The position numbers and the translations under genes were made by a program. From the NCBI RefSeq assembly GCF_004341685.1, contig NZ_SMAA01000002.1, forward strand, positions 1 to 64,000: a stretch of DNA of 64,000 bases, in the 5' to 3' direction. Of this stretch, positions 42,396-54,961 are shown piece after piece. Each line of letters begins with the position of its first letter. Positions within the stretch are counted from its first letter, which is position 1. Origin of the DNA: Pectinatus cerevisiiphilus. Lineage in GTDB: Bacteria > Bacillota > Negativicutes > Selenomonadales > Selenomonadaceae. The notes beneath the pieces are model-generated. The model made no database searches and had not been told where the DNA came from. It saw only the letters and a list, made by a program, of their open reading frames with translations.

Positions 42396-44345
42396 TTGGA
42401 CGGAAGTGAAAGAATAGAAAAGGATAGTTCCTGTCTGGTTGAGGACACATGCGGCTGTTCTTGCTGTCACAATGAAGGGGCAGAGGAAGAAGAGGATGAA
42501 GGCGTATGGTATAAAAGCAGTGAATTTTATGAGATCCTTATTGGCGCTGTCCTTTTTGCGGCAGCACAGCTAATATCCTTGTATATGCCTGCGTACCAGC
42601 TGCCTTTATTAATTATTTCTTATCTTATTTTAGGTAAAGAGGTACTTTTGAATGCTGGCCGAAATATTTTAAAGGGGCATGTATTTGATGAAAATTTCCT
42701 AATGAGTATAGCGACTCTTGGTGCTTTTGCTATTGCTGAGTATCCTGAAGCAGCGGGTGTAATGCTTTTTTTCCGAATCGGTGAATTTTTTGAAGAAAGA
42801 GCTGCCAATAAAAGCCGTAGACAAATAATAGAAGCCATTGATATGCGTCCGGAAACAGTCCTGCTGGTCAATGAACAGGATGAACCTGTTGCTATTCCTG
42901 CAAATCAGGCGGTTGTTGGCAATATTATAATAGTGCGGCCGGGAGATCGCATACCACTTGACGGGACAGTACTTGAGGGAACAAGTCAGATTGATTCTTC
43001 CCCCCTTACCGGCGAAGCTGTGCCGATCACTGTTTCGGAAAAAGAAAGTGTTTTGTCAGGATGTATAAATAAAACTGGTGTCTTAAAAATAAGGGTAGAA
43101 AAAATATTAGATGAATCAATGGTATCGAGAGTTTTGGCATCTGTACAAAGTGCCGCTGCAAATAAACCTCGCATCCAACGCTTTATTTCGCGTTTCGCAG
43201 GAGTTTATACGCCAATAGTTGTCATAGTGGCATTGCTAATAGCCGTGGTCCCCTCGTTATTCACAGGCCAGTGGCATAATTATATATATATTGCGCTTAC
43301 TTTCTTAGTAATAAGTTGTCCATGTGCTTTAGTTTTAAGTGTTCCCTTGGCGTTTTTTGCAGGGATAGGTAATGCATCACGGCATGGCATTTTATTTAAG
43401 GATGGGGCGGCGATAGAAGCTTTGACACAAATCAAGGCGGCTGCATTGGATAAGACAGGAACGATAACACATGGTGTTTTTGATGTACAGAAAATTAAAA
43501 CCCATAATGGATTTACGGAAAATATAATACTGCAACTTTGCGCAGCCGTGGAAAATGCGTCTACACATCCGTTGGCAGTAAGTATAGTAAGACAAGCGAA
43601 AGAAAAAACGCTGAAAATTTTACCGGCAGTTGATGTAGAGGAAGTTCCAGGTAAAGGTGTTAAAGCGTATGTTGAAAATAAAAAAGTACTCTGTGGTAAT
43701 GCTGTTTTTATGCAGGACTATGATATTCAAATAAATGATGCGGCAGAAAAGACGGCAGTATATTTAGCTGTTGATAATAAATATGCAGGTTGTATCATAC
43801 TAGGAGATCAGATAAAAGATGATGCAGTCAGTGCTATTGCCGGTTTGAAAAAGCAAGGCATCAGCGTAGCTATGCTTACGGGTGATTCCAGTGAAGGCGC
43901 CGCAGCAGTAGCTGATAAAACAGGAATAGATATGGTTCACGCAAAACTTTTACCGGATGAAAAACTTAGCACCATGCAAAAAATACGTGCGGAAAAAGGA
44001 AAAATACTATTTGTCGGAGACGGCATTAACGATGCACCTGTTTTAGCCAATGCAGACGTCGGTGCTGCTATGGGCTCTGGGGCTGATGCGGCGATAGAAG
44101 CTGCTGACGTCGTTTTCATGACATCTCGTGTAGATGCCATCCCCTATGCACTGCGCTTAGCTAAGACAACACGTGCTATCGCGGTTCAAAATGTCGTGTT
44201 TGCCTTAACTATAAAAATATTGATAATGATAGGCAGCTTTTTAGGCTATGCTTCTTTGTGGAGTGCTGTTTTTGCGGATACAGGCGTTGCCATTATCTGT
44301 GTTTTGAATGCTGTACGCATTTTATATAGTGACCATACTACGTGA
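42396..44345 (+). CDS. Heavy-metal-transporting P1B-type ATPase (Zn/Cd/Co efflux type)
   Basis: ATP-driven metal exporter of the inner membrane, 649 residues. Motifs in order: eight hydrophobic helices in the usual 2+2+2+2 pattern, the actuator motif LTGEAVPI, the metal-binding CPC in VISCPCALVLSVPL, the phosphorylated Asp in ALDKTGTITHG, the HP locus in ASTHPLAVSIV, MLTGDSSEGA and VGDGINDAPVLANADVG. CPC and the overall form fit the ZntA/CadA class. The N-terminus lacks a ferredoxin-like HMA domain and instead has a short Cys-rich segment (CLVEDTCGCSCCHNE) followed by acidic residues, probably a metal-sensing tail. GAGGGGG precedes the TTG start, and a terminator follows. Confidence 0.9.
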   Translation: MDGSERIEKDSSCLVEDTCGCSCCHNEGAEEEEDEGVWYKSSEFYEILIGAVLFAAAQLISLYMPAYQLPLLIISYLILGKEVLLNAGRNILKGHVFDENFLMSIATLGAFAIAEYPEAAGVMLFFRIGEFFEERAANKSRRQIIEAIDMRPETVLLVNEQDEPVAIPANQAVVGNIIIVRPGDRIPLDGTVLEGTSQIDSSPLTGEAVPITVSEKESVLSGCINKTGVLKIRVEKILDESMVSRVLASVQSAAANKPRIQRFISRFAGVYTPIVVIVALLIAVVPSLFTGQWHNYIYIALTFLVISCPCALVLSVPLAFFAGIGNASRHGILFKDGAAIEALTQIKAAALDKTGTITHGVFDVQKIKTHNGFTENIILQLCAAVENASTHPLAVSIVRQAKEKTLKILPAVDVEEVPGKGVKAYVENKKVLCGNAVFMQDYDIQINDAAEKTAVYLAVDNKYAGCIILGDQIKDDAVSAIAGLKKQGISVAMLTGDSSEGAAAVADKTGIDMVHAKLLPDEKLSTMQKIRAEKGKILFVGDGINDAPVLANADVGAAMGSGADAAIEAADVVFMTSRVDAIPYALRLAKTTRAIAVQNVVFALTIKILIMIGSFLGYASLWSAVFADTGVAIICVLNAVRILYSDHTT

Positions 44346-44516: not shown

Positions 44517-44546
44517 TTGACAACTAGAAAATAAGTGTTATATTAT
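44517..44546 (+). promoter_or_regulatory. Predicted promoter of the iron-uptake operon
   Basis: A consensus TTGACA (44517-44522) is followed by TATATT (44539-44544, 16-base spacer) or TATTAT (44541-44546, 18-base spacer). The Fur-like palindrome starts 15-17 bases downstream, in the expected initiation region. Confidence 0.65.
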
Positions 44547-44560
44547 ATTGTTATGGGCGG

Positions 44561-44587
44561 TAATGATAATTATTCTCCTTATCATTA
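44561..44587 (+). promoter_or_regulatory. Fur box controlling the iron-uptake operon
   Basis: A perfect inverted repeat TAATGATAA (44561-44569) N9 TTATCATTA (44579-44587). Its central 19 bases (44565-44583) match the classical 19-base Fur consensus at 15 positions by my count. It lies just downstream of the promoter, where a bound repressor would block initiation, and every gene downstream is iron-related. Confidence 0.8.
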
Positions 44588-44704
44588 CTACTACAATTCT
44601 AAAGATGCTGACTTAACTGATAATATTTTTGCGGGCAGTCACTCCTGGCGATTGTTTGTTAATCTTCATTGAACATAGTAATTATGAGAAAGGAGGTTAA
44701 CCCA

Positions 44705-45688
44705 ATGTCTGTAGCGGAGACCTGTTATATTGAGTCTAAATGCGGGATGGGTACCTTCCTACGCGTTATGAGTTTTACAAAAGAAAATGAGCATTCGTTT
44801 ACCCCTATATGGGAAGTTTTTGAAAATGTCGAACGGCTTTGCAGCCGTTTCAGCAGTGATAGCCAGCTTTCCTTGATCAATAAAATGGCTGGACAAGAAC
44901 GAGTGCAGGTTGATGAAAAGCTGGCAAAGATTTTGCTTGCGGCGCAGCGGATATCAGCTTTTACTGATGGAGCTTTTGATGCTACAGTAGGGGCTGTCAC
45001 CTCTTTGTGGTCGATGAAACCGCATGATGTCAAGATACCAACAGAAATAGAACAAAAGGCGGCAGAGTCTTTGGTCAATTACCGGTGGTTTGATATTAAA
45101 GGGCGAGATGCTTTCTTGGCAAAAGAAAAGATGAAACTTGATCTTGGCGGTATTGCTAAAGAATTTGCGCTCCATGAAGCGGCAGAAACGGCAACAAAAA
45201 TAGGTGTTGGCTCCGCCATAATAGACGCAGGTGGTGATGTGTGCACTATTGGCGCTAAACCGAACAATAGGCCATGGCGCATTGGCATCCAACATCCAAG
45301 ACGTGCCAAGACTTTGTTGGCAAGTGTAGTCTTGCAAAATTGGGACACAGTGGAAACATCAGGTGACTATCAACGCTTTATAAAAGATGGTGACAAGGTG
45401 TACAGCCATATTTTCTCTGTCAGACAGGCAGATGTGTCTGAGAAATTGATCAGTGCAACTTTGATTTACCGGCGGCAGCATGAGCTTTTACCAATAAATG
45501 GCGCAGCTTTTATTGCCAGCGGTCTTGCGAAAAGCAAAGCTTTTTTAGAGATGCTCCCCAATGTTGAGGCAATATTGGTTACAGATGCAATGCAGGTATT
45601 TATAACAGAAGGACTGAGAGGATATATTCACATCCTGCCGCATCAGATGAGGCATCAAACTTTTATTTTTAACAGGAGGGCATGTTGA
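44705..45688 (+). CDS. ApbE-like FAD:protein FMN transferase (degenerate)
   Basis: Member of the ApbE family, enzymes that attach FMN to Ser/Thr of extracytoplasmic proteins; 327 residues. Family features are seen in GMGTFLRVMSF, FDATVGAVTSLW, KLDLGGIAKEFALHEAA, AIIDAGGDVCTIG and PWRIGIQHPR. The C-terminal half retains ETSGDYQRFI and YSHI, but the metal-binding DPxTG that should follow HI is replaced by FSVRQADVSEK. No signal peptide or lipobox is present. AGGAGG gives a clear ATG at 44705. It is first in the iron operon, whose last gene encodes a flavinylation-motif lipoprotein, so the two probably work together. Given the missing motif, catalysis is uncertain. Confidence 0.8.
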   Translation: MSVAETCYIESKCGMGTFLRVMSFTKENEHSFTPIWEVFENVERLCSRFSSDSQLSLINKMAGQERVQVDEKLAKILLAAQRISAFTDGAFDATVGAVTSLWSMKPHDVKIPTEIEQKAAESLVNYRWFDIKGRDAFLAKEKMKLDLGGIAKEFALHEAAETATKIGVGSAIIDAGGDVCTIGAKPNNRPWRIGIQHPRRAKTLLASVVLQNWDTVETSGDYQRFIKDGDKVYSHIFSVRQADVSEKLISATLIYRRQHELLPINGAAFIASGLAKSKAFLEMLPNVEAILVTDAMQVFITEGLRGYIHILPHQMRHQTFIFNRRAC

Positions 45689-45689
45689 T

Positions 45690-46313
45690 TTGAGTAGTGT
45701 AGAACTTTTTAGCAAGGGCGGTCCTGTAATGTATGTGTTATTGCTGTGCTCGTTATGTGTGGCAGCAATAGCAATCGACCGATTTATTTTTTATCGACGG
45801 GCGCAAAAAGGAATAAGCCCTTTTTTAGAGTCACTGCCGGAAATAACGAAAAAACCGTTGGATAATGCTGTGGAAACATGTGAAAAGGAAACAAACGCAG
45901 CAGGTTTTATTGCTACGACGGGCTTGAAAGCAGCTGAAGAAAGTACCGATGTGAAACTTGCACTCGATACTGCTTATGCTTCTGCTGCTATGCAGTTGCG
46001 GGCAAGATTAAATTATCTTTCGATGATTGTTACGTTATCACCTCTTTTGGGGTTGTTGGGAACAATCTCCGGTATGATCCAGTCATTTAGTATTTTCAGC
46101 TTGCAGGCAGGACAACCGCTGGCTATCACCGGTGGCATAGGCGAAGCACTAATCGCTACAGCTACAGGTTTATGTGTAGCTATTTTTGCACTTTTAGTAC
46201 ATACGTATTTTGCCCAGCAGCTGGATAAGATACTTAATGATCTGGACCGTGCGGCATCTATTGTACTGTCTTCTGTTTATAAAGGAAATGAGGGACAAGC
46301 AGATGCGACGTGA
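45690..46313 (+). CDS. exbB: ExbB/TolQ/MotA-family proton channel protein
   Basis: Inner-membrane stator subunit that, with ExbD, uses the proton gradient to energise TonB. The 207-residue protein has one N-terminal helix (GGPVMYVLLLCSLCVAAIAI) and two further helices in the conserved region LSMIVTLSPLLGLLGTISGMIQSF and GIGEALIATATGLCVAIFALLVHTYF. The motifs GLLGTV-like and A-T-G-L match the family. It starts at TTG 45690, right after the ApbE-like stop codon, with AGGAGG inside the end of that gene. It overlaps exbD by 11 bases, indicating translational coupling. Confidence 0.93.
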   Translation: MSSVELFSKGGPVMYVLLLCSLCVAAIAIDRFIFYRRAQKGISPFLESLPEITKKPLDNAVETCEKETNAAGFIATTGLKAAEESTDVKLALDTAYASAAMQLRARLNYLSMIVTLSPLLGLLGTISGMIQSFSIFSLQAGQPLAITGGIGEALIATATGLCVAIFALLVHTYFAQQLDKILNDLDRAASIVLSSVYKGNEGQADAT

Positions 46314-46713
46314 TTTTCGTATTACAGAGGAACCGAAAGTTGTTATAATTCCAATGATTGACATAATGCTTTTCTTATTGGTCTTTTTTATGATAAGTAC
46401 AATTTATATGGTTCAACTCAATACGATGACAGTTAATTTACCAGCAGCTGCCGCAGCACAAAGAGAAACAAAACCTAATCTAGTATCAATAACTGTGACC
46501 GATAAGGGTGACGTAGTATATGATAAAGACCAAACCCCTGTGGATAATCTGGCACAGAGAGTACAGCAATCATTGACGGAGGATACAGATACGGTATTTG
46601 TCCTGCGTGGAGATAGAAACGCTGCTTATGAAGGTATTGCTTCCGTATTAGACGTATTGAAGCAGTCAGGAGCGCGTCATGTATCCATTGCAACTGAAAT
46701 CAAGGGGAGGTAA
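46303..46713 (+). CDS. exbD: ExbD/TolR-family biopolymer transport protein
   Basis: Partner of ExbB with one N-terminal helix and a periplasmic domain, 136 residues. The proton-carrying Asp lies in IIPMIDIMLFLLVFFMI (about residues 16-32), and the C-terminal domain has VFVLRGDRNAAYEGIASVLDVLKQSG, the standard ExbD pattern. The start at ATG 46303 behind GAGGGA is chosen because the longer frame extends deep into exbB. Confidence 0.93.
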   Translation: MRRDFRITEEPKVVIIPMIDIMLFLLVFFMISTIYMVQLNTMTVNLPAAAAAQRETKPNLVSITVTDKGDVVYDKDQTPVDNLAQRVQQSLTEDTDTVFVLRGDRNAAYEGIASVLDVLKQSGARHVSIATEIKGR

Positions 46714-46718
46714 CAGCT

Positions 46719-47402
46719 TTGCAATATCCTACTCATTGGCGGATGGCATTTTTGCTGGCACTTTTCTTTCATTTGGGTGTTTGGCTGGCAGGTAGTTTCA
46801 TCTTGCCGCATTTACATGCGGAAGCACTACCGCCTGAAGAAACGCAGGCTCTTGAATGGGATACTGTCGATGAAGATGATGAACCGCCTGGACCGATAGA
46901 GGAAGAAAAAGAACCAACCCCTTCCGTACCACAAGAACAGAATGCTGCACCGGCAGCAACATCTGAACAGGAAACCCCAGAAGAAGATACAACACCTATA
47001 ATAGCTGAAGAAGACGAACCTGCTACGGCAGAGCTCATCAAAGAAGCGGCGGGTGATCCTTCTAAAAGCGATAAGATAGTGATTGTCAGTAAAGCAATTA
47101 GTGGCGGCGGTGGTGGACAATCAGTACAGATGGGACAGCCCCCTATATTGATAGATGATTTTTATCCACCGGTTAACATTGTGAGTTTTAAAGGCCGTGT
47201 CAGTGTTTATGCCACGATTGACAAGACTGGCAAAATCGTGAAAACGAGGATAGCAGTAACTTCCGGCAGCCCCAGTGTGGATCAGATTGCAATGGATTCC
47301 GCACGCCGGTGGACATTTAAACCGGCACTGGACCAAAACGGCATGCCGATGGAATGCACGAAGATCATTTCGATTCCATTTAATATGCCCGTGCGGAAAT
47401 AA
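46719..47402 (+). CDS. tonB: TonB-family energy transducer
   Basis: Periplasm-spanning protein, 227 residues, transmitting ExbBD energy to an outer-membrane receptor. It has one N-terminal signal-anchor helix (MAFLLALFFHLGVWLAGSFIL). A proline-rich linker (about 40-110) follows that is strongly acidic (EDDEPPGPIEEEKEPTPS) instead of the alternating Glu-Pro/Lys-Pro usual in enteric TonB. The C-terminal domain contains VSVYATIDKTGKIVKTRIAVTSG and ARRWTFKPALDQNGMP, with the family's RWxFxPA. GGGGAGG lies before a TTG start. It probably serves the receptor at the right end of the window or others elsewhere. Confidence 0.9.
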   Translation: MQYPTHWRMAFLLALFFHLGVWLAGSFILPHLHAEALPPEETQALEWDTVDEDDEPPGPIEEEKEPTPSVPQEQNAAPAATSEQETPEEDTTPIIAEEDEPATAELIKEAAGDPSKSDKIVIVSKAISGGGGGQSVQMGQPPILIDDFYPPVNIVSFKGRVSVYATIDKTGKIVKTRIAVTSGSPSVDQIAMDSARRWTFKPALDQNGMPMECTKIISIPFNMPVRK

Positions 47403-47422
47403 TTTTTTTTTGCAATCTTAAT

Positions 47423-47441
47423 GATAATAATAATAATAATC
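47423..47441 (+). promoter_or_regulatory. Second Fur-box-like site before the FTR1 gene
   Basis: A 19-base GAT(AAT)5C-type run, built from a trinucleotide repeat, matches the E. coli Fur consensus at 16 of 19 positions by hand count. It lies in the 61-base gap between tonB and the permease gene, 22 bases before the FTR1 ATG. It may allow internal iron control of the second half of the operon. The low complexity makes a chance match possible. Confidence 0.4.
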
Positions 47442-47463
47442 AATACTGAAAGGACATGCATAA

Positions 47464-48660
47464 ATGAAAAAAGTCATTATGCTCCTGGCGATGCTGATAG
47501 TTTTTTCTGTGGTATTACCGGCACAGGCTGCGCCGAAATGGGAGCAGGTCGGTCAGCATATTACACAGGCTATGGGAGCGGCTCTTGATATTTACAATTC
47601 TGGTGACAATGAGGGAGCAAAGAATGCTGTCAATGATATCTACTACGGCATTTATGAAAAAGATGGTTTGGAAACGGCTATTCGTAACACCGTAGCAGCT
47701 AAAAATGCCAATTTGACAGAATATCAGTTCAGTAAATTAAAGAAACTTATGACACAGGGGGCTGACAGTGCCCAAGTAAAAGAAGCAGCAGATACTTTGC
47801 TCAAAATGATTGATGGTGACGTACAGAGCCTTCAAGGTTCACATGCCGCGCAAGGCGGTTGGGCTTCTTTTTGGCCAGCTTTTATAATCCTTTTACGTGA
47901 AGGTATTGAAGCCATTTTGGTTTTAGCAGCTATTATAGCTTATCTTTGTAAATCGGGCAATGAAAAGTATTTGAGCTATGTTTATAACTATTCAATAGCA
48001 GCAATCATTGCCAGTTTCATTACAGCATATATTTTCAATTCGATTGCCCAGGAGTTCGGCGCTGGTGCCAATCAGGAAATAGTAGAAGGTGTTACTGTCC
48101 TGATTGCTGTGGTGGTTTTGCTTTCTGTCAGCCTTTGGATGGGTGGTAAGTCCAATGCCAAGGTGTGGGAAGCATATATACAGAAAATGGTAAAGACTTC
48201 CATGTCAACAGGCCGTGCGAGAACTCTTGGATTTGCGGCATTTCTGGCCGTGTATCGTGAAGGTGCTGAAGTAGTGCTCTTTTATCAAGCTTTGTTCAAC
48301 AATGCCGCTGGTGATGTTGAAATGATATGGCTTGGTTTTGCAGCGGCTTGTGTGGCGTTGGCCATAATATTCACACTGATTCGTGTAGGTGCGCTGCGCA
48401 TACCTTTACGTCCGTTCTTTATTGGTACAAGTATTTTTATGTATATATTAGCCGTAAGCTTTGCCGGCAGCGGCATCGAAGAATTACAGGAAGGAGGTCT
48501 CATCAGTATTACGCCTATTGAAGGGATTCCTATGCCAAATATAGACATATTAGGTATATATCCAACATATGAAACAATGGCGATACAGGTGATTCTAGTG
48601 ATTGCTGCGATTGTGGGCATTGTTTATTATAAAAAGAAGGATTCATCGCAACCAACATAA
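47464..48660 (+). CDS. FTR1-family iron permease with periplasmic N-terminal domain (FetM/Cj1658-like)
   Basis: Inner-membrane high-affinity iron permease, 398 residues. A signal peptide (to about AQA, residue 22) precedes a periplasmic helical domain of about 110 residues. Seven hydrophobic helices follow, carrying the two iron-translocation motifs REGIEAILVL (about 143) and REGAEVVLFY (about 264). The C-terminus has a short Lys-rich tail. This architecture is that of bacterial FTR1 proteins paired with P19, as in Campylobacter and uropathogenic E. coli. GAAAGGAC precedes the ATG. The P19 gene follows after 24 bases. Confidence 0.93.
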   Translation: MKKVIMLLAMLIVFSVVLPAQAAPKWEQVGQHITQAMGAALDIYNSGDNEGAKNAVNDIYYGIYEKDGLETAIRNTVAAKNANLTEYQFSKLKKLMTQGADSAQVKEAADTLLKMIDGDVQSLQGSHAAQGGWASFWPAFIILLREGIEAILVLAAIIAYLCKSGNEKYLSYVYNYSIAAIIASFITAYIFNSIAQEFGAGANQEIVEGVTVLIAVVVLLSVSLWMGGKSNAKVWEAYIQKMVKTSMSTGRARTLGFAAFLAVYREGAEVVLFYQALFNNAAGDVEMIWLGFAAACVALAIIFTLIRVGALRIPLRPFFIGTSIFMYILAVSFAGSGIEELQEGGLISITPIEGIPMPNIDILGIYPTYETMAIQVILVIAAIVGIVYYKKKDSSQPT

Positions 48661-48684
48661 TGTTATTTTAAGAGGAGTGTATTT

Positions 48685-49239
48685 ATGAAAAAGTTTAGGT
48701 CGTTGTTCGCAGTTTTTGCTGCAATGGTATCATTATTTGCTTTTGTCGGTGCTGCATCTGCTGCAGGCTTTCAGGAATATCCGATCGGAGACGAACAAGA
48801 AGCAGCTAATGAACATTTTAAAGTCGCACTTGTTTACTTCCAGCCTATCGAAATGGAACCTAAGGGAATGATGCTCGAACCAGATAAAGCTGACATTCAT
48901 ATGGAAACAGACATTCATGCTACTGAAGGTAATAACACAGGCTTTGGTGTTGGTGAATGGATCCCTTATCTTACCGTTCATTATAAACTTACAAAACAGG
49001 AAACTGGTGAATCAATTGAAGGCGTATTCATGCCGATGAACGCTGACGATGGCCCTCATTACGGAGCTAATGTAAAAATGCTGGGTGCTGGTACCTATGA
49101 TTGCGAATTTACGATCGACAGCCCGCTGCGTATGAACTATGGACTCCATGTAGATAAAGATACTGGTGTTGAAGGACGTTTCTGGGAAACACCGGTTGTT
49201 ATGCATTGGACATTCAACTACGTTCCCAGAAATTGGTAA
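48685..49239 (+). CDS. Periplasmic iron-transport protein of the P19/Tp34 (FetP) family
   Basis: Secreted metal-binding protein of 184 residues that hands iron to the FTR1 permease. The signal peptide ends near ASAAG (about 27). The mature part shows EYPIGDEQE, ALVYFQPIEMEPKGMM, ADIHMETDIHATEGN, GFGVGEWIPYLTVHYKL, FMPMNADDGPHYGANVKM and YGLHVDKDTG. Together these supply the Met, His, Glu and Asp residues that bind Cu and Fe in P19. GAGGAG lies before the ATG. The strong hairpin after the gene may favour its accumulation over the downstream membrane components. Confidence 0.94.
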   Translation: MKKFRSLFAVFAAMVSLFAFVGAASAAGFQEYPIGDEQEAANEHFKVALVYFQPIEMEPKGMMLEPDKADIHMETDIHATEGNNTGFGVGEWIPYLTVHYKLTKQETGESIEGVFMPMNADDGPHYGANVKMLGAGTYDCEFTIDSPLRMNYGLHVDKDTGVEGRFWETPVVMHWTFNYVPRNW

Positions 49240-49258
49240 GAAATACAACTGAAATATT

Positions 49259-49307
49259 CCTGTCCGACATTAAGCCGTTGGTGTGGCTTAGGCCGGACAG
49301 GGCTTTT
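49259..49307 (+). terminator. Intra-operon hairpin after the P19 gene
   Basis: CCTGTCCG (49259-49266) pairs with CGGACAGG (49294-49301), with an inner AAGCC/GGCTT stem, and CTTTTT follows. It sits 20 bases before the next start codon. It probably causes partial termination or protects the upstream mRNA end. Confidence 0.65.
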
Positions 49308-49326
49308 TCATTGAAAGGAACAAGTT

Positions 49327-50589
49327 ATGTTACAAACTTTTTTGCAACAATTCATTCCGGCTATGGAGCAAGGTGTTACATTGGCTGTTCCCTTGGGAAT
49401 TTTGCTAGCAATTCTCGTAAATATGGACACGAAAGAATATAAGAAGACTTTTTTTCGCGCTTTAGCATGGGGCTTTTGGGGTTCCATATTTATTGTGGTT
49501 GTCAAAGTTGGTACACGAAATGCGGTCAGCCGTGAAGTTTTTGAGAGTTTGGCAATAGTCGTTGCTGTTTGTGCTGAAATCGCTATATTGCTGTTTTTCT
49601 TTAGGAAAGATATGCGAAAAAGAAAAATAAAAGATAAAAAGGTTTCCGGTGCAGTGGCAGCTATGGTTGTGGCACTATGCCTATATCATGGCATGGAAAT
49701 TTGGCTTATTCCTGTAACAACGCTTGTTACAGCAGCTGGCAATTATTTTACGGTTATGGTTTTGATCAGACTATTGGGTTTTGCGTTTGGTTTTGGTTTT
49801 TCTGTCCTTGGTGGATATCTTGTACATAAGGCTGCGGCCGCTCTTTATTATGGAAGGCTGCTGTTTGTTTTTACTGTACAGTTAGCTGCAATTTTTTTAC
49901 AGCAAATTATATTTTTAATACAGATAATGATGGCGAGACAGTTCTTGCCCGGTGGACCTTTAATGAAGGTTATGGCACCGTTAATAGATCATCAGTCATG
50001 GTTCATTTTTATTGTGTTTTTTATTACGGTATTGGTTCCTGTTACGCTCTTTTTGCAGAAAAAACCACAGCGTCCACAGGGAACGAATCCTGCCCAGTAT
50101 AGAAAAATTCTTATGTATGCCAAGCATAAATTGCGCTGGGGAACAGCAGTGATAATAAGCTTGTGCATAATGGTAGCAATATCGAGTTATGGCAGCGTTT
50201 ATGCCAATAAAAAAGAAATATTAGTGCCGGCAGTGCCTGTAAATGCGGTTGACGGTAATGTTAGTGTTTCTCTTGATAAAGTTAATGACGGACATTTGCA
50301 TAGATTTGTGTATAAAGCATCCGGTGGAGAAATGGTTCGCTTTATTGTTATACAAAAAGGCGGGTCTTCTTATGGAGTCGGACTTGACGCTTGTGAAATC
50401 TGTGGGGCCACAGGTTATTATGAAAAAGATGGTCAGGTTATCTGCAGATTGTGTGATGTCAGAATGAATAAGGCAACTATCGGTATGAAAGGTGGCTGCA
50501 ACCCGATTCCCGTTGAGTATAAAGTGGCAAACGGCAGTATAAATGTCACTCAGGCCAGTCTAGAAAAAGACCGGGACAAATTTAAATGA
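49327..50589 (+). CDS. DUF2318 multi-pass membrane protein (Cj1660-like), cysteine-rich C-terminus
   Basis: Inner-membrane protein of 420 residues with about eight helices and a C-terminal extracytoplasmic DUF2318 domain of about 110 residues. That domain contains VGLDACEICGATGYYEKDGQVICRLCDVRMN-type spacing: two CxxC pairs (DACEIC near 352, CRLCD near 369) and TIGMKGGCNPIP near 380, probably a metal or Fe-S site. Proteins of this family occupy the same place in Campylobacter p19 and E. coli fet clusters, between the iron-binding protein and the ABC genes. A redox or iron-handling role is likely but not proven. AAAGGAACAAGTT precedes the ATG. Confidence 0.85.
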   Translation: MLQTFLQQFIPAMEQGVTLAVPLGILLAILVNMDTKEYKKTFFRALAWGFWGSIFIVVVKVGTRNAVSREVFESLAIVVAVCAEIAILLFFFRKDMRKRKIKDKKVSGAVAAMVVALCLYHGMEIWLIPVTTLVTAAGNYFTVMVLIRLLGFAFGFGFSVLGGYLVHKAAAALYYGRLLFVFTVQLAAIFLQQIIFLIQIMMARQFLPGGPLMKVMAPLIDHQSWFIFIVFFITVLVPVTLFLQKKPQRPQGTNPAQYRKILMYAKHKLRWGTAVIISLCIMVAISSYGSVYANKKEILVPAVPVNAVDGNVSVSLDKVNDGHLHRFVYKASGGEMVRFIVIQKGGSSYGVGLDACEICGATGYYEKDGQVICRLCDVRMNKATIGMKGGCNPIPVEYKVANGSINVTQASLEKDRDKFK

Positions 50590-50612
50590 TGCAGCGAGAG
50601 GAGTGACCGGTT

Positions 50613-51893
50613 TTGTTTTGGCAGATGGTAAAAGGAGCTATAATGCGGCAGAGCCGCCGACTTTTGTTAGTGGCATTGACTGTAGCTTTAGGCGTATCTT
50701 TGGCAACGGCCATGCTCAACGTAATGTTTGATGTCGGGGATAAAGTTAATCAGGAATTAAAGGCCTATGGTGCAAATATCGTAGTTACACCAAAAAATGC
50801 GTCCGTATTGAAAGACGTTTATGGTTTGGATGATACGAGTGCGCGTATGGAATACTTGAATGAATCAGACTTGGGCAAAATTAAAACAATATTTTGGACA
50901 AATAATATTGTTGCATTTGCTCCGCAGCTTAATGCGTCTATAAGCTTGCAGGATGGGCAGACAGTTAATATAGAAGGCACCTGGTTTGACCACCAAATGC
51001 TCCTGCCGACAGGAGAATATTTCTCTACAGGTGATAAATATTTGAAATCATGGTGGCAGGTTGACGGTGCATGGGCTAACGATGACGGCAGTAATGGTGT
51101 TATGGTTGGTAAAAAGCTGGCAAAAGATCTCAATGTAAATCCAGGTGATACGATAACCTACAAAAAACCGGATGGACAGACTGACGTGCTGACGGTAAGT
51201 GGAATTGTAAGTGGCGGAGGCAATGAAGAAAACGCTATATTGGCACCATTGGCTTTTGTGCAGAATTTGACGGGATTGCAAAATAAAATTGATCAGGTCG
51301 AAGTCAGTGCTGTAACGACACCAGAAAATGAACTTGCCCGTAAAGCAGCAGCCAATCCGAAGAGCCTGACGATGAAGGAATATGAAATATGGTATTGTAC
51401 CTCATACGTAAGTTCAATAGCATTTCAGATAGAAGAAGTAATTCCGGATTCCGTGGCACATCCAGTACGGCAAATAGCTGAATCGGAAGGAAAAATCTTA
51501 GATAAGACACAAATGCTGATGCTGCTCATAACAGGGCTTAGCTTGTTGAGTTCTATCCTTGGCGTATCCAACCTTGTGAGTGCTAATATTATGGAAAGAA
51601 GCCGTGAACTGGGATTGTTAAAAGCGCTGGGGGCTACTAATTTGGCGATCGTGCTGCTGATTTTGACAGAGATATTCTTGGCAGGATTGGCTGGCGGAAT
51701 TTGCGGCTACTTTATCGGTCTGGGCTTTGCGCAAATCATAGGGAATACAGTGTTTAATTCAAGCATTGCGATTAATATAGTAGTCGTACCTATAGTAGCA
51801 GGGCTCATGTCATTGGTTATATTACTGGGCAGCCTGCCGGCTATCCGAATGATCTTGTCCCTGCGGCCGGCGATTGTTCTTCATGGCAGGTGA
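50613..51893 (+). CDS. ABC transporter permease, MacB/FtsX type (first of pair)
   Basis: Inner-membrane subunit of 426 residues with the mechanotransmission topology. It has one N-terminal helix (RRLLLVALTVALGVSLATAML), a large periplasmic MacB-PCD domain (about 40-290) with Gly-Ala-Asn motif KAYGANIVVTPKN, then three helices in the FtsX domain including ERSRELGLLKALGATN and a C-terminal LRPAIVLHGR. Such transporters move signals or substrates in the periplasm rather than import them. It starts at TTG 50613 behind GAGAGGAG. It corresponds to the cj1661/1662 position of the p19 cluster. Confidence 0.9.
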   Translation: MFWQMVKGAIMRQSRRLLLVALTVALGVSLATAMLNVMFDVGDKVNQELKAYGANIVVTPKNASVLKDVYGLDDTSARMEYLNESDLGKIKTIFWTNNIVAFAPQLNASISLQDGQTVNIEGTWFDHQMLLPTGEYFSTGDKYLKSWWQVDGAWANDDGSNGVMVGKKLAKDLNVNPGDTITYKKPDGQTDVLTVSGIVSGGGNEENAILAPLAFVQNLTGLQNKIDQVEVSAVTTPENELARKAAANPKSLTMKEYEIWYCTSYVSSIAFQIEEVIPDSVAHPVRQIAESEGKILDKTQMLMLLITGLSLLSSILGVSNLVSANIMERSRELGLLKALGATNLAIVLLILTEIFLAGLAGGICGYFIGLGFAQIIGNTVFNSSIAINIVVVPIVAGLMSLVILLGSLPAIRMILSLRPAIVLHGR

Positions 51894-51902
51894 GAAAACT
51901 TA

Positions 51903-53033
51903 ATGAAAAAATATAGAATGTACTTTATTATGGTCATAAATGCGTTGCTGCGGCGGCGTACAAGAATGGCTATCGCCCTGCTGGCAGTTGCGGTCGGGGC
52001 AACTATCATCTCTGGAATGATAACTGTTTATCGAGAAATTCCGCAGCAGATGGGACGTGAATTTAGAGCGTATGGTGCCAATCTGCTTATTTTACCGGGA
52101 AAAGACCGCAGCACGTTATCAGGCGATGAAGTAAAGAAAATAAGTGACAGTTTAAGTGATTATGAAATAGTAGGGGTTGCCCCATTTCTGTACGAAAGAT
52201 TGAAGATAAATGAACAACCAATACTGACTGGCGGTGCTGATTTCGCTATGCTGCAAAAGGTAACTCCTTATTGGCAGATAACAGGTAATTGGCCGCAAGA
52301 AGGAAAACAAGAAATTCTGCTTGGTGATGAAGAAGCACAAAGAATGAGTATCAAACCAGGGCAGACCGTTCTTGTAAGCGCGGGCAATGATGCTGCTGAG
52401 CAGACTTTTGTAGTTTCCGGTATAGTCCATACAGGGGGTAAGGAAGAACAATTTGCCTTTATGGATTTGGCGCTGTTACAGAAAATGCTCCAAAAAGAAG
52501 ACCAAGTCAGTTTAGCACAGATAAGTATTGTCGCTGATGGAACGGTACTGGAAAATGTCAGCAAAATGATAAGCGAAAAGTATCCAGATGTCCAACCGCA
52601 GTTAGTAAAGCAGATCGCCCATTCGGAAGAAACCGTTTTGAGTAAACTGCAAGCACTTGTCCTTTTGGTTACAATGGTCGTTTTATTACTGACATTAATC
52701 TGTGTAGCGACGACGATGATGGCAGTTGTTACTGAACGGCGTCGTGAAATAGGGTTGAAAAAAGCACTTGGCGCAGAAAACAAAAATATCATCTGTGAAT
52801 TTTTGGGTGAAGGATGTATATTGGGATTTTTCGGCGGCGTGTTAGGAGCAGGGCTAGGCTATTTATTTGCCCAGCTTGTAAGTATGAACGTATTCGGCCG
52901 CACAATCGAATTTGCACCATCAATTGCAGTGTTTTCGATAGTTCTGTCAATTGTTATAACAGGCATAGCCAGCCTTATACCGGTGCGTATTGCTACAAAT
53001 GTTGAACCGGCAATCGTATTGCGCGGTGAATGA
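51903..53033 (+). CDS. ABC transporter permease, MacB/FtsX type (second of pair)
   Basis: Second permease of 376 residues with the same layout as its neighbour: an N-terminal helix (MAIALLAVAVGATIISGMI), a periplasmic domain with EFRAYGANLLILPGKDR, and three C-terminal helices around ERRREIGLKKALGAEN, ending VEPAIVLRGE. It is somewhat shorter and clearly paralogous to the first, so the transporter is probably a heterodimer. It begins 10 bases after the first permease stop, and its stop overlaps the ATPase leader. Confidence 0.9.
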   Translation: MKKYRMYFIMVINALLRRRTRMAIALLAVAVGATIISGMITVYREIPQQMGREFRAYGANLLILPGKDRSTLSGDEVKKISDSLSDYEIVGVAPFLYERLKINEQPILTGGADFAMLQKVTPYWQITGNWPQEGKQEILLGDEEAQRMSIKPGQTVLVSAGNDAAEQTFVVSGIVHTGGKEEQFAFMDLALLQKMLQKEDQVSLAQISIVADGTVLENVSKMISEKYPDVQPQLVKQIAHSEETVLSKLQALVLLVTMVVLLLTLICVATTMMAVVTERRREIGLKKALGAENKNIICEFLGEGCILGFFGGVLGAGLGYLFAQLVSMNVFGRTIEFAPSIAVFSIVLSIVITGIASLIPVRIATNVEPAIVLRGE

Positions 53034-53044
53034 GGAGGATGGTC

Positions 53045-53704
53045 ATGAGTTTATTGGAATTAAAAGATGTATCTATGGCCTATGGCGGAAAAGTATTCGC
53101 TTTGCAGGACATCAATATGACTGTTGAAAAAGGTGAGTGGCTGGCGATAATGGGTCCGTCAGGTTCCGGCAAGACTACTCTTATGAACATAATTGGGTGT
53201 ATGGATAAAGCTACATCGGGAACAGTAATTTTGGATGGAATAGACTTGACTGATGTTACCCATCAGCAATTGACAACCATGCGCCGTGATAAAATTGGCA
53301 TGGTATTTCAGCAGTTTCATCTTATTCCGTATCTGACCGCAGTAGAAAATATAATGGTTGCCCAATATTACCATAGTTTACCTGATAAAAAGGAAGCCTT
53401 GGCGGCTTTGGACCGAGTGGGGTTGGAGGATCGTGCCAACCATCTGCCCAGCCAGTTATCAGGCGGTGAACAGCAGCGTGTGTGTATTGCCCGTGCACTT
53501 ATTAATTATCCAGTTTTGATTTTAGCGGATGAACCGACAGGGAACCTTGATGAAGCAAATGAAAGACTGGTTATGAAGATATTCCATGAGCTTCACGACG
53601 AGGGACATACTATTTTGACTGTAACTCACGCACCGGAAGTTGGCAGGGAAGCGCAACGGGAAATCATTATAGAACATGGACGTATTGCGAACAGTGAGGT
53701 ATGA
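53045..53704 (+). CDS. ABC transporter ATP-binding protein (MacB/LolD-like)
   Basis: Cytoplasmic ATPase of 219 residues driving the two FtsX-type permeases. Walker A GPSGSGKTTLMNIIG (about 38-52), Q-loop FQQFHLIP, signature LSGGEQQRVCIARAL, Walker B LILADEPTGNLD and the H-loop Val-Thr-His are all present. GAGGAGG (53032-53038) lies 6 bases before ATG 53045, which I prefer over the in-frame ATG at 53030. The stop overlaps the open frame of the lipoprotein that follows. Confidence 0.95.
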   Translation: MSLLELKDVSMAYGGKVFALQDINMTVEKGEWLAIMGPSGSGKTTLMNIIGCMDKATSGTVILDGIDLTDVTHQQLTTMRRDKIGMVFQQFHLIPYLTAVENIMVAQYYHSLPDKKEALAALDRVGLEDRANHLPSQLSGGEQQRVCIARALINYPVLILADEPTGNLDEANERLVMKIFHELHDEGHTILTVTHAPEVGREAQREIIIEHGRIANSEV

Positions 53705-53709
53705 TCGGG

Positions 53710-54219
53710 ATGAAGAAAAAATATGAAGCTTTGGTTTTTGCCGGTATTTTATCGACGCAGATTTTGGCAGGTTGTGCCAGTGATCAGCAGGAAAGCAGCA
53801 GTAGTGATGGTACAGTAGCTGTACCTGTGAGCTCAGGCGGTGATGGCAAAGCACCGTGCTGTGATTTGTCAGATACCAAAGATGGTGAGTTCACGGCTGA
53901 AAGTAAATCGGATAATTTTATGGGACATGGGCGGATTGCTGTTACGATTAAAGACCATAAAATTGTTGGCGTCAACTTTGTCGGGATAGATCCTGATGGT
54001 AATATTAAGGGTGCTGATTATGGAAAAACTAACGGACAAGTGGAAAATCCTGGTTTTTATCAAAAGGCACAGAGGGCTGTCAAGGCTAATTCTCAGTATG
54101 CAGACCAGTTATTGCAGGTGCAGGAATTAGAAAAAGTTGACGTTATTTCAGGGGCTACCGTATCATATGACCAATTCGTTGAAGCGGCCAAAACTGCTAT
54201 AGAAAATGCTAAAAAATAG
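53710..54219 (+). CDS. FMN-binding-domain lipoprotein (flavinylation target)
   Basis: Exported lipoprotein of 169 residues, predicted to carry covalently linked FMN and shuttle electrons outside the cytoplasmic membrane. The signal peptide ends in the lipobox LAGC (Cys about 20), followed by a Ser-rich linker. The FMN-binding domain then runs through FTAESKSDNFMGHGRIAVTIKD to the C-terminal acceptor motif VDVISGATVSYDQF, matching DxxSGATxS/T with Ser as probable FMN attachment residue. A CC pair (APCCDLSD, about 48-52) lies before the domain. With the ApbE-like protein at the operon start, it suggests a flavin-based step in iron uptake, most simply ferric reduction. Confidence 0.87.
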   Translation: MKKKYEALVFAGILSTQILAGCASDQQESSSSDGTVAVPVSSGGDGKAPCCDLSDTKDGEFTAESKSDNFMGHGRIAVTIKDHKIVGVNFVGIDPDGNIKGADYGKTNGQVENPGFYQKAQRAVKANSQYADQLLQVQELEKVDVISGATVSYDQFVEAAKTAIENAKK

Positions 54220-54235
54220 ATATATCACACTGATA

Positions 54236-54264
54236 TTGACAGGGATAGCAGCGGTAGATATAAT
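54236..54264 (+). promoter_or_regulatory. Perfect-consensus sigma-A promoter upstream of the GlpP-like gene
   Basis: TTGACA (54236-54241), a 17-base spacer and TATAAT (54259-54264): an exact match to the consensus. Initiation near 54271 gives an RNA of about 85 bases up to the terminator at 54310-54356, or a full mRNA if the terminator is read through. Confidence 0.85.
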
Positions 54265-54275
54265 ATGTATTGCAT

Positions 54276-54317
54276 AACAAAATAATTTTTACTGAAAAGA
54301 AAGTATACTCGGTATTA
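54276..54317 (+). promoter_or_regulatory. Putative ribonucleic antiterminator box A
   Basis: This stretch shares ordered blocks AACAAAATA, TTTTTA, TGAA, GTAT and TCGGTATTA with 55113-55156, the leader of the aldolase operon. In both leaders the last block forms the ascending arm of the terminator stem, the arrangement expected of an RNA target for an antiterminator protein. Both surrounding regions are AT-rich, but the order and spacing (42 and 44 bases) argue against chance. Confidence 0.6.
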
Positions 54318-54356
54318 AAAAATGGGATTAAAACTATTTTTTAATACCGTTTTTAT
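54310..54356 (+). terminator. Leader terminator before the GlpP-like gene
   Basis: CGGTATTAAAAAAT (54310-54323) pairs perfectly with ATTTTTTAATACCG (54336-54349), followed by TTTTT. It lies between a perfect promoter and the antiterminator gene and would allow autoregulation. Confidence 0.9.
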
Positions 54357-54400
54357 ATATGTGAAAATATTTATGTATAGCAAGTGGAGGAACCTAATTG

Positions 54401-54961
54401 ATGATAAAAAAGATTTTTTCTATCATTCCATCAGTACGTGATATAAAGGCTTTGAAAAAGGCATTGACTATTCCGGGAGATACTATTCTTTTGAGCACCA
54501 TTACACATATTGGCAACCTGAAGGAACTTACCGCACTTTGCCATAGTGCAGGTAAAAAAGTGATCGTGAACCATGAATTGGTTGGTGGTTTGGGAAATGA
54601 TAATACAGCATTTACTATGCTGAAAAATATGTATAAAGTGGATGCAGTCATAGAAAGCAACCAAATTTATGCTGGGCGTGCAAAAGCAGCTGGAATAGAA
54701 GTGATTTTAAAAATCCCGCTTATAGATTCCTTGGCGATGGAATCGGCACTTAAATTAATAAAAAATGTCAACCCTGGAACGCTTGAAGTCAAACCGGCAA
54801 TATGCGCGCTTAATAATATTGGAAAAATAAAAAAGCAATATAGTGGAAAGATTTTTGCCAGTGGTTTTATAGATGATATAGAATTAGCTGATAAATTATA
54901 TGACGGTGGCTTAGACGGAATTATGACCAGCAGGCAGAGCTTATGGAGTAAATATTATTAG
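54401..54961 (+). CDS. GlpP-family glycerol-3-phosphate-responsive antiterminator homologue
   Basis: Predicted RNA-binding antiterminator of 186 residues. The GlpP family has a TIM-barrel-like fold related to glycerophosphodiester enzymes and, in Bacillus, binds glycerol 3-phosphate and then the glp leader RNA to block termination. Recognisable features are SVRDIKALKKALTIPGDTILLSTITHIGNL-like N-terminus, GKKVIVNHELVGGLGNDNTAFTML, VDAVIESNQ, IDSLAMESALKLIKNVNPGTLEVKPA and FASGFIDDIELADKLYDGGLDGIMTSRQSLW. AAGTGGAGG sits 10 bases before ATG 54401. No glp genes are nearby; instead an aldolase/dehydrogenase operon with its own leader terminator follows, so the ligand may be another phosphorylated polyol or sugar. 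Confidence 0.85.
   Translation: MIKKIFSIIPSVRDIKALKKALTIPGDTILLSTITHIGNLKELTALCHSAGKKVIVNHELVGGLGNDNTAFTMLKNMYKVDAVIESNQIYAGRAKAAGIEVILKIPLIDSLAMESALKLIKNVNPGTLEVKPAICALNNIGKIKKQYSGKIFASGFIDDIELADKLYDGGLDGIMTSRQSLWSKYY

What the first reader, a model, noticed from the sequence alone, without database searches (positions are those of the whole stretch)
44517..54219. P19/FTR1 iron-import cluster fused with an ApbE-FMN-lipoprotein pair and its own ExbB-ExbD-TonB motor under a Fur box
Seen: one-direction operon with tight spacing: ApbE-like, ExbB, ExbD, TonB, FTR1, P19, DUF2318, two MacB-type permeases, ATPase, FMN-binding lipoprotein, preceded by TTGACA promoter and a 9-9-9 Fur palindrome. Established: Campylobacter p19 (Cj1658-1665) and E. 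coli fetMP-fetABCDEF share FTR1, P19, DUF2318 and the ABC parts, with thioredoxin-like proteins at the end. Inference: here the terminal thioredoxin-like role appears to be taken by a covalently flavinylated lipoprotein, so periplasmic ferric reduction by a flavin carrier may feed the FTR1 permease in a diderm Firmicute. The TonB motor adds outer-membrane import to the same regulon.
Basis: partly seen in the sequence, partly recalled or inferred. Interest (0 to 1): 0.8.

Follow-up and report, generated by a model that had tools for sequence, protein, structure and literature searches.

The report
Iron-uptake operon with cytoplasmic flavin loader
This is a known type of bacterial iron-uptake gene cluster, but the enzyme that should attach a flavin to its exported protein seems to stay inside the cell, in bacteria that also lack the usual flavin exporter, so the flavin may be attached before the protein leaves the cell.

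Summary
In detail: window 44517-54219 holds ApbE-ExbB-ExbD-TonB-FTR1-P19-FtrD(DUF2318)-two permeases-ATPase-FMN lipoprotein in one direction, behind a Fur-like palindrome, in a relative of Pectinatus haikarae. The headline inference is not new: Liu 2018 and Meheust 2021 report an FMN-binding protein where Proteobacteria have thioredoxin. Two things go beyond it. (1) TonB stands upstream of FTR1 in 38 of 45 Negativicutes clusters and 0 of 15 others; I found no TonB-dependent receptor beside the Negativicutes clusters. (2) This ApbE has no recognisable signal peptide and lacks the conserved metal-site Asp, yet it is the genome's only ApbE match and the lipoprotein its only FMN_bind match. Seven such ApbEs occur in four families; a second, separate signal-less clade sits beside the FMN gene in Clostridia, Endomicrobium and Coriobacteriales. 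The FAD-exporter marker EetB is present in 0 of 7 genomes of the first kind and 0 of 5 of the second, against 69 of 70 relatives whose ApbE carries a signal. Best reading: an iron-starvation P19/FTR1 importer whose FMN lipoprotein is flavinylated in the cytoplasm before Sec export. The chief rival is that this ApbE is inactive. No experiment was possible.

The parts
44517..44546 (+). sigma-70-like promoter, TTGACA with TATATT or TATTAT
   Evidence: consensus scan only
44560..44588 (+). Fur-like operator: perfect 10-9-10 inverted repeat; contains a 7-1-7 Fur box with 2 mismatches
44705..45688 (+). ApbE-family FAD:protein FMN transferase without recognisable signal peptide ('class 1')
   Evidence: Pfam PF02424; AlphaFold model pLDDT 75.8, pTM 0.79, best matches FmnB with TM 0.78-0.80; motif and N-terminus analysis; only ApbE match in the genome
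45690..46313 (+). ExbB/TolQ-like proton channel
   Evidence: PF01618
46297..46713 (+). ExbD/TolR-like protein (start uncertain, 46297 or 46303)
   Evidence: PF02472
46719..47402 (+). TonB-like protein, weak TonB_C domain
   Evidence: PF03544, 34 bits
47418..47446 (+). second Fur-like box, before FTR1
   Evidence: 3 mismatches to the first palindrome; 7-1-7 box with 2 mismatches, p 0.005
47464..48660 (+). FTR1/FetM iron permease
   Evidence: PF03239
48685..49239 (+). P19/FetP periplasmic iron-binding protein; signal peptide visible in the sequence
   Evidence: PF10634
49327..50589 (+). FtrD-like membrane protein (DUF2318, FetA) with CxxC-x13-CxxC-x14-C
   Evidence: PF10080; the five Cys invariant in the 16 aligned sequences
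50613..51893 (+). MacB/FtsX-type permease (FetB)
   Evidence: PF12704, PF02687
51903..53033 (+). MacB/FtsX-type permease (FetC)
   Evidence: PF12704, PF02687
53030..53704 (+). ABC ATPase (FetD)
   Evidence: PF00005
53701..54219 (+). FMN_bind lipoprotein; only FMN_bind match in the genome
   Evidence: PF04205, genome search; model pLDDT 80.7 matching 3o6u, an FMN_bind structure described as flavinylated in PMC11334425 (passage)
54139..54159 (+). flavinylation motif DVISGAT; Thr153 (54157-54159) is the expected FMN attachment site
   Evidence: D147, G151, A152, T153 invariant in 20 of 20 aligned sequences
54310..54349 (+). terminator-like stem-loop with T tail (may instead belong to the leader of the next gene)
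   Evidence: pattern scan only

Best explanation
The locus is an iron-starvation-controlled P19/FTR1/FtrD/ABC iron importer of a diderm Firmicute. Shown from sequence: the gene set, two Fur-like boxes, an exported lipoprotein with an intact ApbE target motif, and an ApbE without recognisable export signal. Inferred: P19 and FtrD bring iron to the FTR1 permease; the lipoprotein, carrying one FMN covalently on Thr153, gives or takes the electrons that this transfer needs, in the place that thioredoxins hold in Proteobacteria; ExbB-ExbD-TonB energises outer-membrane receptors encoded elsewhere. The new step, inferred: ApbE works in the cytoplasm with cytoplasmic FAD and attaches FMN to the lipoprotein precursor before it goes out through Sec, so that the cell needs no FAD exporter. 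Estimated likelihoods: iron importer with FMN lipoprotein about 0.9; lipoprotein covalently flavinylated about 0.7; flavinylated in the cytoplasm before export about 0.5.
For: Own genome: one ApbE match, one FMN_bind match, both here, no NqrB/RnfD match. Of 150 relatives, 31 of 31 genomes with an FtrD (a broken low-scoring one, G017, left out) have ApbE and FMN_bind, against 50 and 44 of the 119 others; Fisher 2e-10 for ApbE. In the genus the two species with FtrD have ApbE and FMN_bind and the three without have neither. By hydropathy, ApbE lacks a signal in 7 of 7 complete class-1 examples (L053 less clear) and in 5 Clostridia-type examples; of the other 74 ApbE genomes among the relatives I inspected 71 ApbEs, and 70 carry a hydrophobic N-terminal stretch. 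The two signal-less groups are separate clades. EetB, marker of FAD export: 0 of 7 class-1 genomes; the one other signal-less ApbE genome, G111, also lacks it; 69 of 70 genomes with a signal-bearing ApbE have it (Fisher 3.8e-10 for 0 of 8). Without inspection the count is 0 of 7 against 70 of 74 (9.5e-8), or 23 of 24 within FtrD genomes (3e-6). Second clade 0 of 5, against 4 of 4 Clostridia whose FMN cluster has no linked ApbE. EetB lies in or beside the cluster in ten other loci. Class-1 ApbE is under purifying selection (dN/dS about 0.06, dS saturated) and keeps the Ser and His of the active site. ApbE can flavinylate a seven-residue tag in cells of E. coli (PMC12052999, passages).
Against: The Asp that binds metal in known ApbEs is not conserved in any of the 7 class-1 proteins, and metal-ligand residues were the only ones found critical in T. 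pallidum Ftp (PMC4767422, passages). A Salmonella ApbE kept in the cytoplasm did not complement (PMC12052999, passages). ApbE-free relatives also mostly lack EetB (66 of 69), and all five genomes of this genus lack it, so its absence alone does not show where ApbE acts. One signal-bearing FtrD genome (G023) and two of five signal-bearing MAG controls (L078, L081) also lack EetB. G111, signal-less and EetB-free, has no FMN_bind match at all. The P values ignore shared ancestry. Tat export was not searched for; the signal peptides only lack a twin-arginine motif by eye. Signal peptides were judged by hydropathy, not by SignalP.
Confidence: 0.52

Rival explanations
1. The class-1 ApbE is catalytically dead and has been reused, for example as an FAD- or iron-linked partner or chaperone; the lipoprotein holds FMN loosely or not at all, and absence of the FAD exporter simply reflects that no flavinylation occurs.
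For: The metal-binding Asp is missing in 7 of 7 class-1 members and also in signal-bearing L034, L036 and L217; altered HIxDPxTG region; EetB absent.
Against: The target motif is intact in the six class-1 lipoproteins I could read, whose genomes have no other ApbE match; ApbE is under purifying selection and keeps Ser and His; the second signal-less clade has Glu at the Asp position in the four members that reach it.
Confidence: 0.27
2. Standard topology after all: ApbE reaches the periplasm by an unrecognised route and FAD is exported by a carrier other than EetB; the lipoprotein is flavinylated outside.
For: The review describes ApbEs of secreted targets as periplasmic (PMC12052999, passages); three signal-bearing cases (G023, L078, L081) also lack an EetB match, so another exporter may exist or the assemblies are incomplete.
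Against: No strong hydrophobic stretch in the open frame upstream of the ApbE domain in six of seven class-1 members, and none in the five Clostridia-type ones; both groups lack EetB.
Confidence: 0.12
3. The flavoprotein is not a ferric reductase but an oxidant or electron acceptor that works on ferrous iron or on the FtrD cysteines during passage through FTR1.
For: Bifidobacterium sifABCDE mutants, in a system with FTR1, two FtsX permeases, ATPase and FMN-binding SifE, were sensitive only to ferrous chelators (PMC5449479, passages); FetE of Campylobacter may act as an oxidase (PMC10783030, passages); FtrC is predicted to use Fe2+ oxidation (PMC11966278, start of abstract in a search listing).
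Against: I saw no redox measurement for an FMN-type P19 system; Liu 2018 and Meheust 2021 favour a reducing role.
Confidence: 0.35
4. Two independently transcribed units that merely adjoin: ApbE-ExbB-ExbD-TonB and FTR1-to-FMN.
For: A second Fur-like box before FTR1 in the window, and boxes with at most 2 mismatches in the 250 bases around the FTR1 start in 5 of 6 class-1 loci (in L046 it overlaps the assumed start and in L037 it is 148 bases upstream).
Against: Both would still be under iron control; ExbB, ExbD and TonB accompany FTR1 in 34 of 45 Negativicutes clusters.
Confidence: 0.3

Closest known systems
Campylobacter/E. coli FetMP-FetABCDEF (P19 system)
   Same: FTR1, P19, DUF2318 protein with CxxC-x13-CxxC-x14,15-C, two permeases, ATPase, in the same order, behind a Fur box
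   Different: FMN lipoprotein instead of thioredoxins; ApbE and ExbB-ExbD-TonB added
FMN-type P19 clusters of Firmicutes, Actinobacteria, Spirochaetes and Synergistetes (Liu 2018; Meheust 2021)
   Same: FMN-binding protein as seventh gene
   Different: the passages I read do not mention ExbB-ExbD-TonB or a signal-less ApbE in these clusters; Meheust looked for components with export signals
Bifidobacterium breve bfeUO-sifABCDE
   Same: FTR1, metal-binding protein, eight-TM protein, two FtsX permeases, ATPase, FMN-binding SifE; iron-induced; an apbE transposon mutant was also sensitive to iron limitation (PMC5449479, passages)
   Different: no TonB genes described there; apbE elsewhere (Bbr_1825); homology not tested here by alignment
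Listeria EetB-FmnA-FmnB-PplA
   Same: ApbE (FmnB) plus FMN lipoprotein; FmnB is the best-scoring solved structure
   Different: FmnB works outside and needs the FAD exporter EetB (PMC9973259, passages), of which this genome has no match
Klebsiella cytoplasmic ApbE
   Same: ApbE without signal peptide (review passage)
   Different: its target is a soluble fumarate reductase; here the only FMN_bind match is an exported lipoprotein

Membership tests
P19/FetMP-FetABCDEF iron-uptake system | FTR1, P19, DUF2318 protein, two permeases and ATPase in conserved order | tested here: met
P19/FetMP-FetABCDEF iron-uptake system | CxxC-x13-CxxC-x14,15-C in the DUF2318 protein | tested here: met
   C356, C359, C373, C376, C391 invariant in 16 of 16; motif as printed in PMC6083913
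P19/FetMP-FetABCDEF iron-uptake system | expression under iron limitation | tested here: inconclusive
   Fur-like boxes only; no expression data
P19/FetMP-FetABCDEF iron-uptake system | iron transport | not testable with these tools
   needs an uptake assay
P19/FetMP-FetABCDEF iron-uptake system | metal-binding residues of P19 | not tested
   only the Pfam match was used
ApbE FAD:protein FMN transferase | ApbE fold | tested here: met
   Pfam; model against FmnB TM 0.78-0.80
ApbE FAD:protein FMN transferase | catalytic Ser and His (Ser241, His257 of V. cholerae) | tested here: met
   S219 and H235 invariant in 7 of 7 class-1 proteins; assignment by alignment
ApbE FAD:protein FMN transferase | metal-binding Asp (Asp285 of V. 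cholerae, D283 of E. coli) | tested here: not met
   DxxST is replaced by PINGA, PINGT, PVNGT, PITGS or SVNGS in 7 of 7; in neither alignment does an acidic residue face the Asp. An acidic residue a few positions before, in most of them, might stand in
ApbE FAD:protein FMN transferase | export signal, for enzymes that act on secreted targets | tested here: not met
   by hydropathy; L053 less clear than the rest
FMN_bind flavoprotein | FMN_bind domain, lipobox and DxxSGAT | tested here: met
FMN_bind flavoprotein | covalent FMN | not testable with these tools
   needs mass spectrometry or in-gel fluorescence
TonB energy-transduction system | ExbB, ExbD and TonB | tested here: met
   Pfam; ExbB and ExbD fall below the NCBIfam equivalog cut-offs and score slightly better as TolQ and TolR
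TonB energy-transduction system | partner receptor in the cluster | tested here: not met
   no plug-domain match in the Negativicutes loci searched (flanks of about 5-9 kb, some contigs shorter); one in the spirochaete locus L135; 8 plug matches elsewhere in the genome

The most novel reading that the evidence does not exclude
Bacteria have at least twice moved protein flavinylation into the cytoplasm for the P19 iron-uptake flavoprotein: ApbE lost its signal peptide, the FAD exporter EetB became dispensable, and a Sec-exported lipoprotein leaves the cell already carrying covalent FMN. That would be a third route beside Tat export of folded, loaded proteins and Sec export with cofactor loading outside, and in class 1 it would use an ApbE active site without the usual metal-binding Asp.
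Probability: 0.45. Interest if true: 0.75.

Novelty: new variant of a known kind. Interest (0 to 1): 0.57.

Why it matters
ApbEs outside the membrane need exported FAD; in Listeria an ECF-type exporter with EetB supplies it (PMC9973259, passages). If this cluster loads its flavin inside, it is a compact cassette that carries its own maturation enzyme, which would help explain how it can be present in some species of a genus and absent from others. It also gives a cheap test of whether a covalently bound flavin can pass the Sec channel, and of whether ApbE can work without its metal-binding Asp. The recurring ExbB-ExbD-TonB module ties the P19 system to outer-membrane uptake in diderm Firmicutes; Liu 2018 left the outer-membrane receptor of the Campylobacter system open (passage).

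Tried and rejected
Rejected: that the FMN-for-thioredoxin swap is a discovery. Rejected: that every Firmicute P19 cluster has the FMN gene. From the 64 genomes with a match in the phylum search I chose 13 with long frames (375 codons or more) that were not yet held; 11 of those regions held the FTR1-to-ATPase set and only L182, plus a weak L180 (56 bits), had an FMN gene downstream (downstream frames of ten looked at by eye). L191 and L192 were not P19 clusters. Rejected: that a TonB-dependent receptor sits in the Negativicutes clusters (the first plug model rested on 3 seeds, the second on 8). Not resolved: the electron donor of the lipoprotein. A vicinal Cys pair (APCC) of the lipoprotein is shared by 5 of 20 aligned rows only, with a shifted CC in L053. 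One search used a wrong ApbE frame (start 44706) and its ApbE row was void; repaired with 44705. The dN/dS of FMN failed (dS -1) and most dS values are near or above 1. The strict motif count was 69 of 78 FMN hits: the nine exceptions have Glu, Asn or Gln for Asp, or SAAT, or GGAT, and one frame is cut off; all nine come from loci outside the Negativicutes. In one search, 17 loci identical in FtrD were dropped; loci counted for TonB only if 2.5 kb upstream of FTR1 was held, and for FMN only if 0.9 kb after the ATPase was held. L070 was left out of the class-1 counts because its ApbE is cut off; its genome has a PF07456 match below the cut-off (24.8 bits). Of the 74 other ApbE genomes, G070 and G110 (fragments) and G126 (below the cut-off) were not inspected for a signal. 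In the signal test the ApbEs were all that one search placed, apart from those three. L222 (G082) has a stop inside its ApbE frame.

Papers: I read passages, not whole papers. Literature searches; none listed a paper that I could see joining P19/FTR1 with ExbB in one cluster, or a signal-less ApbE with a secreted target, but subscription journals and preprints are not held.

Full report
What is there. The window lies in a 2.63-Mb genome (G000). Its nearest named relative is Pectinatus haikarae: G002, of the same genus as G000, has a 591,163-base contig like that of the P. haikarae record behind L067, with an identical FtrD end; the window's FtrD is 87% identical to it. Pfam confirms eleven genes in one direction between 44705 and 54219: ApbE, ExbB, ExbD, TonB, FTR1, P19, FtrD-like (DUF2318), two MacB/FtsX permeases, ATPase, FMN_bind lipoprotein. 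A TTGACA promoter and a perfect 10-9-10 palindrome with a Fur-like core precede them; a second Fur-like box lies in the 61-nt gap before FTR1. In the whole genome the 7-1-7 Fur pattern with up to 2 mismatches occurs 84 times against 26 for the reversed control. Fur-like boxes with at most 2 mismatches stand before ApbE in 5 of 6 class-1 loci and at or before FTR1 in 5 of 6 (in L046 the second overlaps the assumed start, in L037 it lies 148 bases up). In the same test none of eight Selenomonas/Centipeda loci (L056-L061, L088, L093) and none of five Clostridia loci (L105, L112, L114, L123, L130) had one.

What was already known. Liu and colleagues (2018, PMC6083913, passages) wrote that the first six genes are conserved in order and that Firmicutes, Actinobacteria, Spirochaetes and Synergistetes carry an FMN-binding protein as the seventh, where most Proteobacteria carry a thioredoxin, and that either can be a source of reducing power. 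Meheust and colleagues (2021, PMC8238504, passages) counted 260 such clusters, mostly in Gram-positives. In B. breve, the bfeUO-sifABCDE cluster looks like the same system; its mutants and an apbE mutant were sensitive to iron limitation, but the sif mutants only to ferrous chelators (PMC5449479, passages), which does not sit easily with a simple ferric-reductase role.

How general the TonB module is. I annotated 94 distinct loci with FtrD (after dropping 17 duplicates), using profiles built from the window and its nearest relatives. Of 45 Negativicutes loci with at least 2.5 kb upstream of FTR1, 38 have TonB and 34 have ExbB, ExbD and TonB; of 15 such loci from other groups none has TonB. The FMN gene was found in 47 of 47 Negativicutes loci and 22 of 23 others with enough DNA after the ATPase. 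These 94 are biased towards relatives of the window; among 11 P19 clusters that I picked from the phylum search only two showed an FMN gene, one of them weakly. No TonB-dependent receptor was found beside the Negativicutes clusters. The genome has 8 plug-domain matches and 5 TonB_C matches, this TonB included; one plug gene on contig C10 lies next to the only perfect 7-1-7 Fur box (C10:16936). So the motor is real and recurrent, but its partner is not known.

The ApbE anomaly. The ApbE of this cluster begins almost at its catalytic domain. No signal peptide can be seen in its open frame, and the same holds for the ApbE upstream of ExbB in G002, G116, G094, G099 and the Massilibacillus MAG (G091); the Propionispira one (L053) has a hydrophobic stretch upstream of the likely start and is less clear. 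All this rests on hydropathy, not on SignalP. As controls I inspected 71 of the 74 other ApbE genomes among the relatives: 20 ApbEs away from P19 clusters and five in or beside them, and 46 more. Seventy have a hydrophobic N-terminal stretch; the exception is G111 (L223). In one search ten ApbEs in or beside P19 clusters carry such a stretch. The metal-binding Asp (Asp285 of V. cholerae, D283 of E. coli) is not conserved in any of the seven class-1 proteins, while the catalytic Ser and His are invariant; three signal-bearing ApbEs (L034, L036, L217) also lack the Asp, so that loss is not tied to the missing signal. The fold is intact: the AlphaFold model (pLDDT 75.8, pTM 0.79) matches Listeria FmnB with TM 0.78-0.80. 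Between this window and P. haikarae the gene is under purifying selection (dN 0.175, dN/dS about 0.06 with dS saturated). A second group of signal-less ApbEs lies directly after the FMN gene in Clostridium minihomine, Faecalispora, two Endomicrobium MAGs and a Coriobacteriales MAG; there the Asp is Glu in the four that reach that far. On a tree of 41 ApbEs the two groups are separate clades, each 100/100, with supported branches and signal-bearing ApbEs between them (L125 and L070, which are cut off, were not in the tree).

The only visible partner is exported. In this genome ApbE and FMN_bind have one match each, both here, and NqrB/RnfD has none (DUF2271 and DUF3570 were not searched). Of 150 relatives, all 31 with an FtrD have ApbE and FMN_bind matches. 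In the genus, the two FtrD species have both and the three others have neither. Each of the seven class-1 genomes has one ApbE and one FMN_bind match; in G091, a MAG of 84% completeness, the FMN_bind match is on another contig and its identity with the cluster's lipoprotein is not shown. In the six lipoproteins I could read from class-1 clusters the motif DxxSGATxS is intact, which would not be expected if nothing used it.

A test against the FAD exporter. ApbEs outside the membrane need FAD there; in Listeria this is supplied by an ECF-type exporter whose marker is EetB, PF07456 (PMC9973259, passages). If class-1 ApbE works inside, EetB should be dispensable. It is absent: 0 of 7 class-1 genomes have a match, and G111, the one other signal-less case, has none either, while 69 of 70 genomes with an inspected signal-bearing ApbE have one (Fisher 3.8e-10; the exception is G023). 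Before inspection the count was 0 of 7 against 70 of 74 (9.5e-8), and 23 of 24 within the other FtrD genomes (3e-6). The second signal-less clade has 0 of 5, while four Clostridia with a P19-FMN cluster but no ApbE in the stretch held have 4 of 4; of five signal-bearing MAG controls three have it. In ten other P19 loci EetB lies in or beside the cluster, in L034 and L036 in the order FMN-EetB-ApbE. Limits: these P values ignore ancestry; the seven genomes come from four families but one ApbE clade; ApbE-free genomes also mostly lack EetB (66 of 69); G111 has no FMN_bind match. So the result fits both loading inside and no loading at all. That separate ApbE lineages agree is the stronger part.

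Mechanism and rivals. I judge most likely that ApbE flavinylates the lipoprotein precursor in the cytoplasm. That ApbE can modify a seven-residue tag on a protein co-expressed in E. coli is known (PMC12052999, passages); that a Sec substrate can carry FMN through the channel is not known to me. The chief rival is that class-1 ApbE has lost activity with its Asp. What the flavin does is open: reduction of ferric iron, or oxidation linked to FTR1 passage.

Verdict. A confirmed and well-read cluster whose headline was already in print, with a variant of its flavin-loading step that I did not find described and that can be tested with one co-expression experiment.

Noticed in passing
window 61752-64000 (-) continuing to G000:C2:67115; second copy G000:C2:70620-75944 (-): Two open frames of 1787 and 1775 codons each join an autotransporter beta-domain (PF03797) to a complete TonB-dependent receptor (Plug plus barrel) on one chain, which would be two outer-membrane barrels in one polypeptide.
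   Followed up: partly
window 53701-54219, residues about 54-55: The lipoprotein has a vicinal Cys pair (APCC) before the FMN domain, shared by five class-1 lipoproteins including this one; it could be redox-active or bind metal.
   Followed up: partly
window 54236-54349: A consensus-perfect TTGACA-17-TATAAT site followed about 45 bases later by a strong terminator-like hairpin, just before a glycerol-3-phosphate responsive antiterminator gene (54398-54961): possibly its leader.
   Followed up: no
window 42396-44345: A P-type metal ATPase with a Cys-rich N-terminus directly upstream; a P-type ATPase hit also lies upstream in the Propionispira locus L053 and, on the other strand, in L052.
   Followed up: no
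G000:C10:16430-16950: A TonB-dependent receptor lies beside the only perfect 7-1-7 Fur box in the genome, a candidate partner for the ExbB-ExbD-TonB of this operon.
   Followed up: no
G111:C17:175047-175928 (L223): An ApbE-like protein without a visible signal peptide and with a deviant active-site motif, in a relative that has neither EetB nor any FMN_bind match; its target is unknown.
   Followed up: no
genomes with FtrD-like matches in frames of about 200 codons: Many genomes of the phylum carry a short DUF2318 protein of about 200 residues, too short to hold the long membrane part of FtrD; whether these belong to another system was not examined.
   Followed up: no
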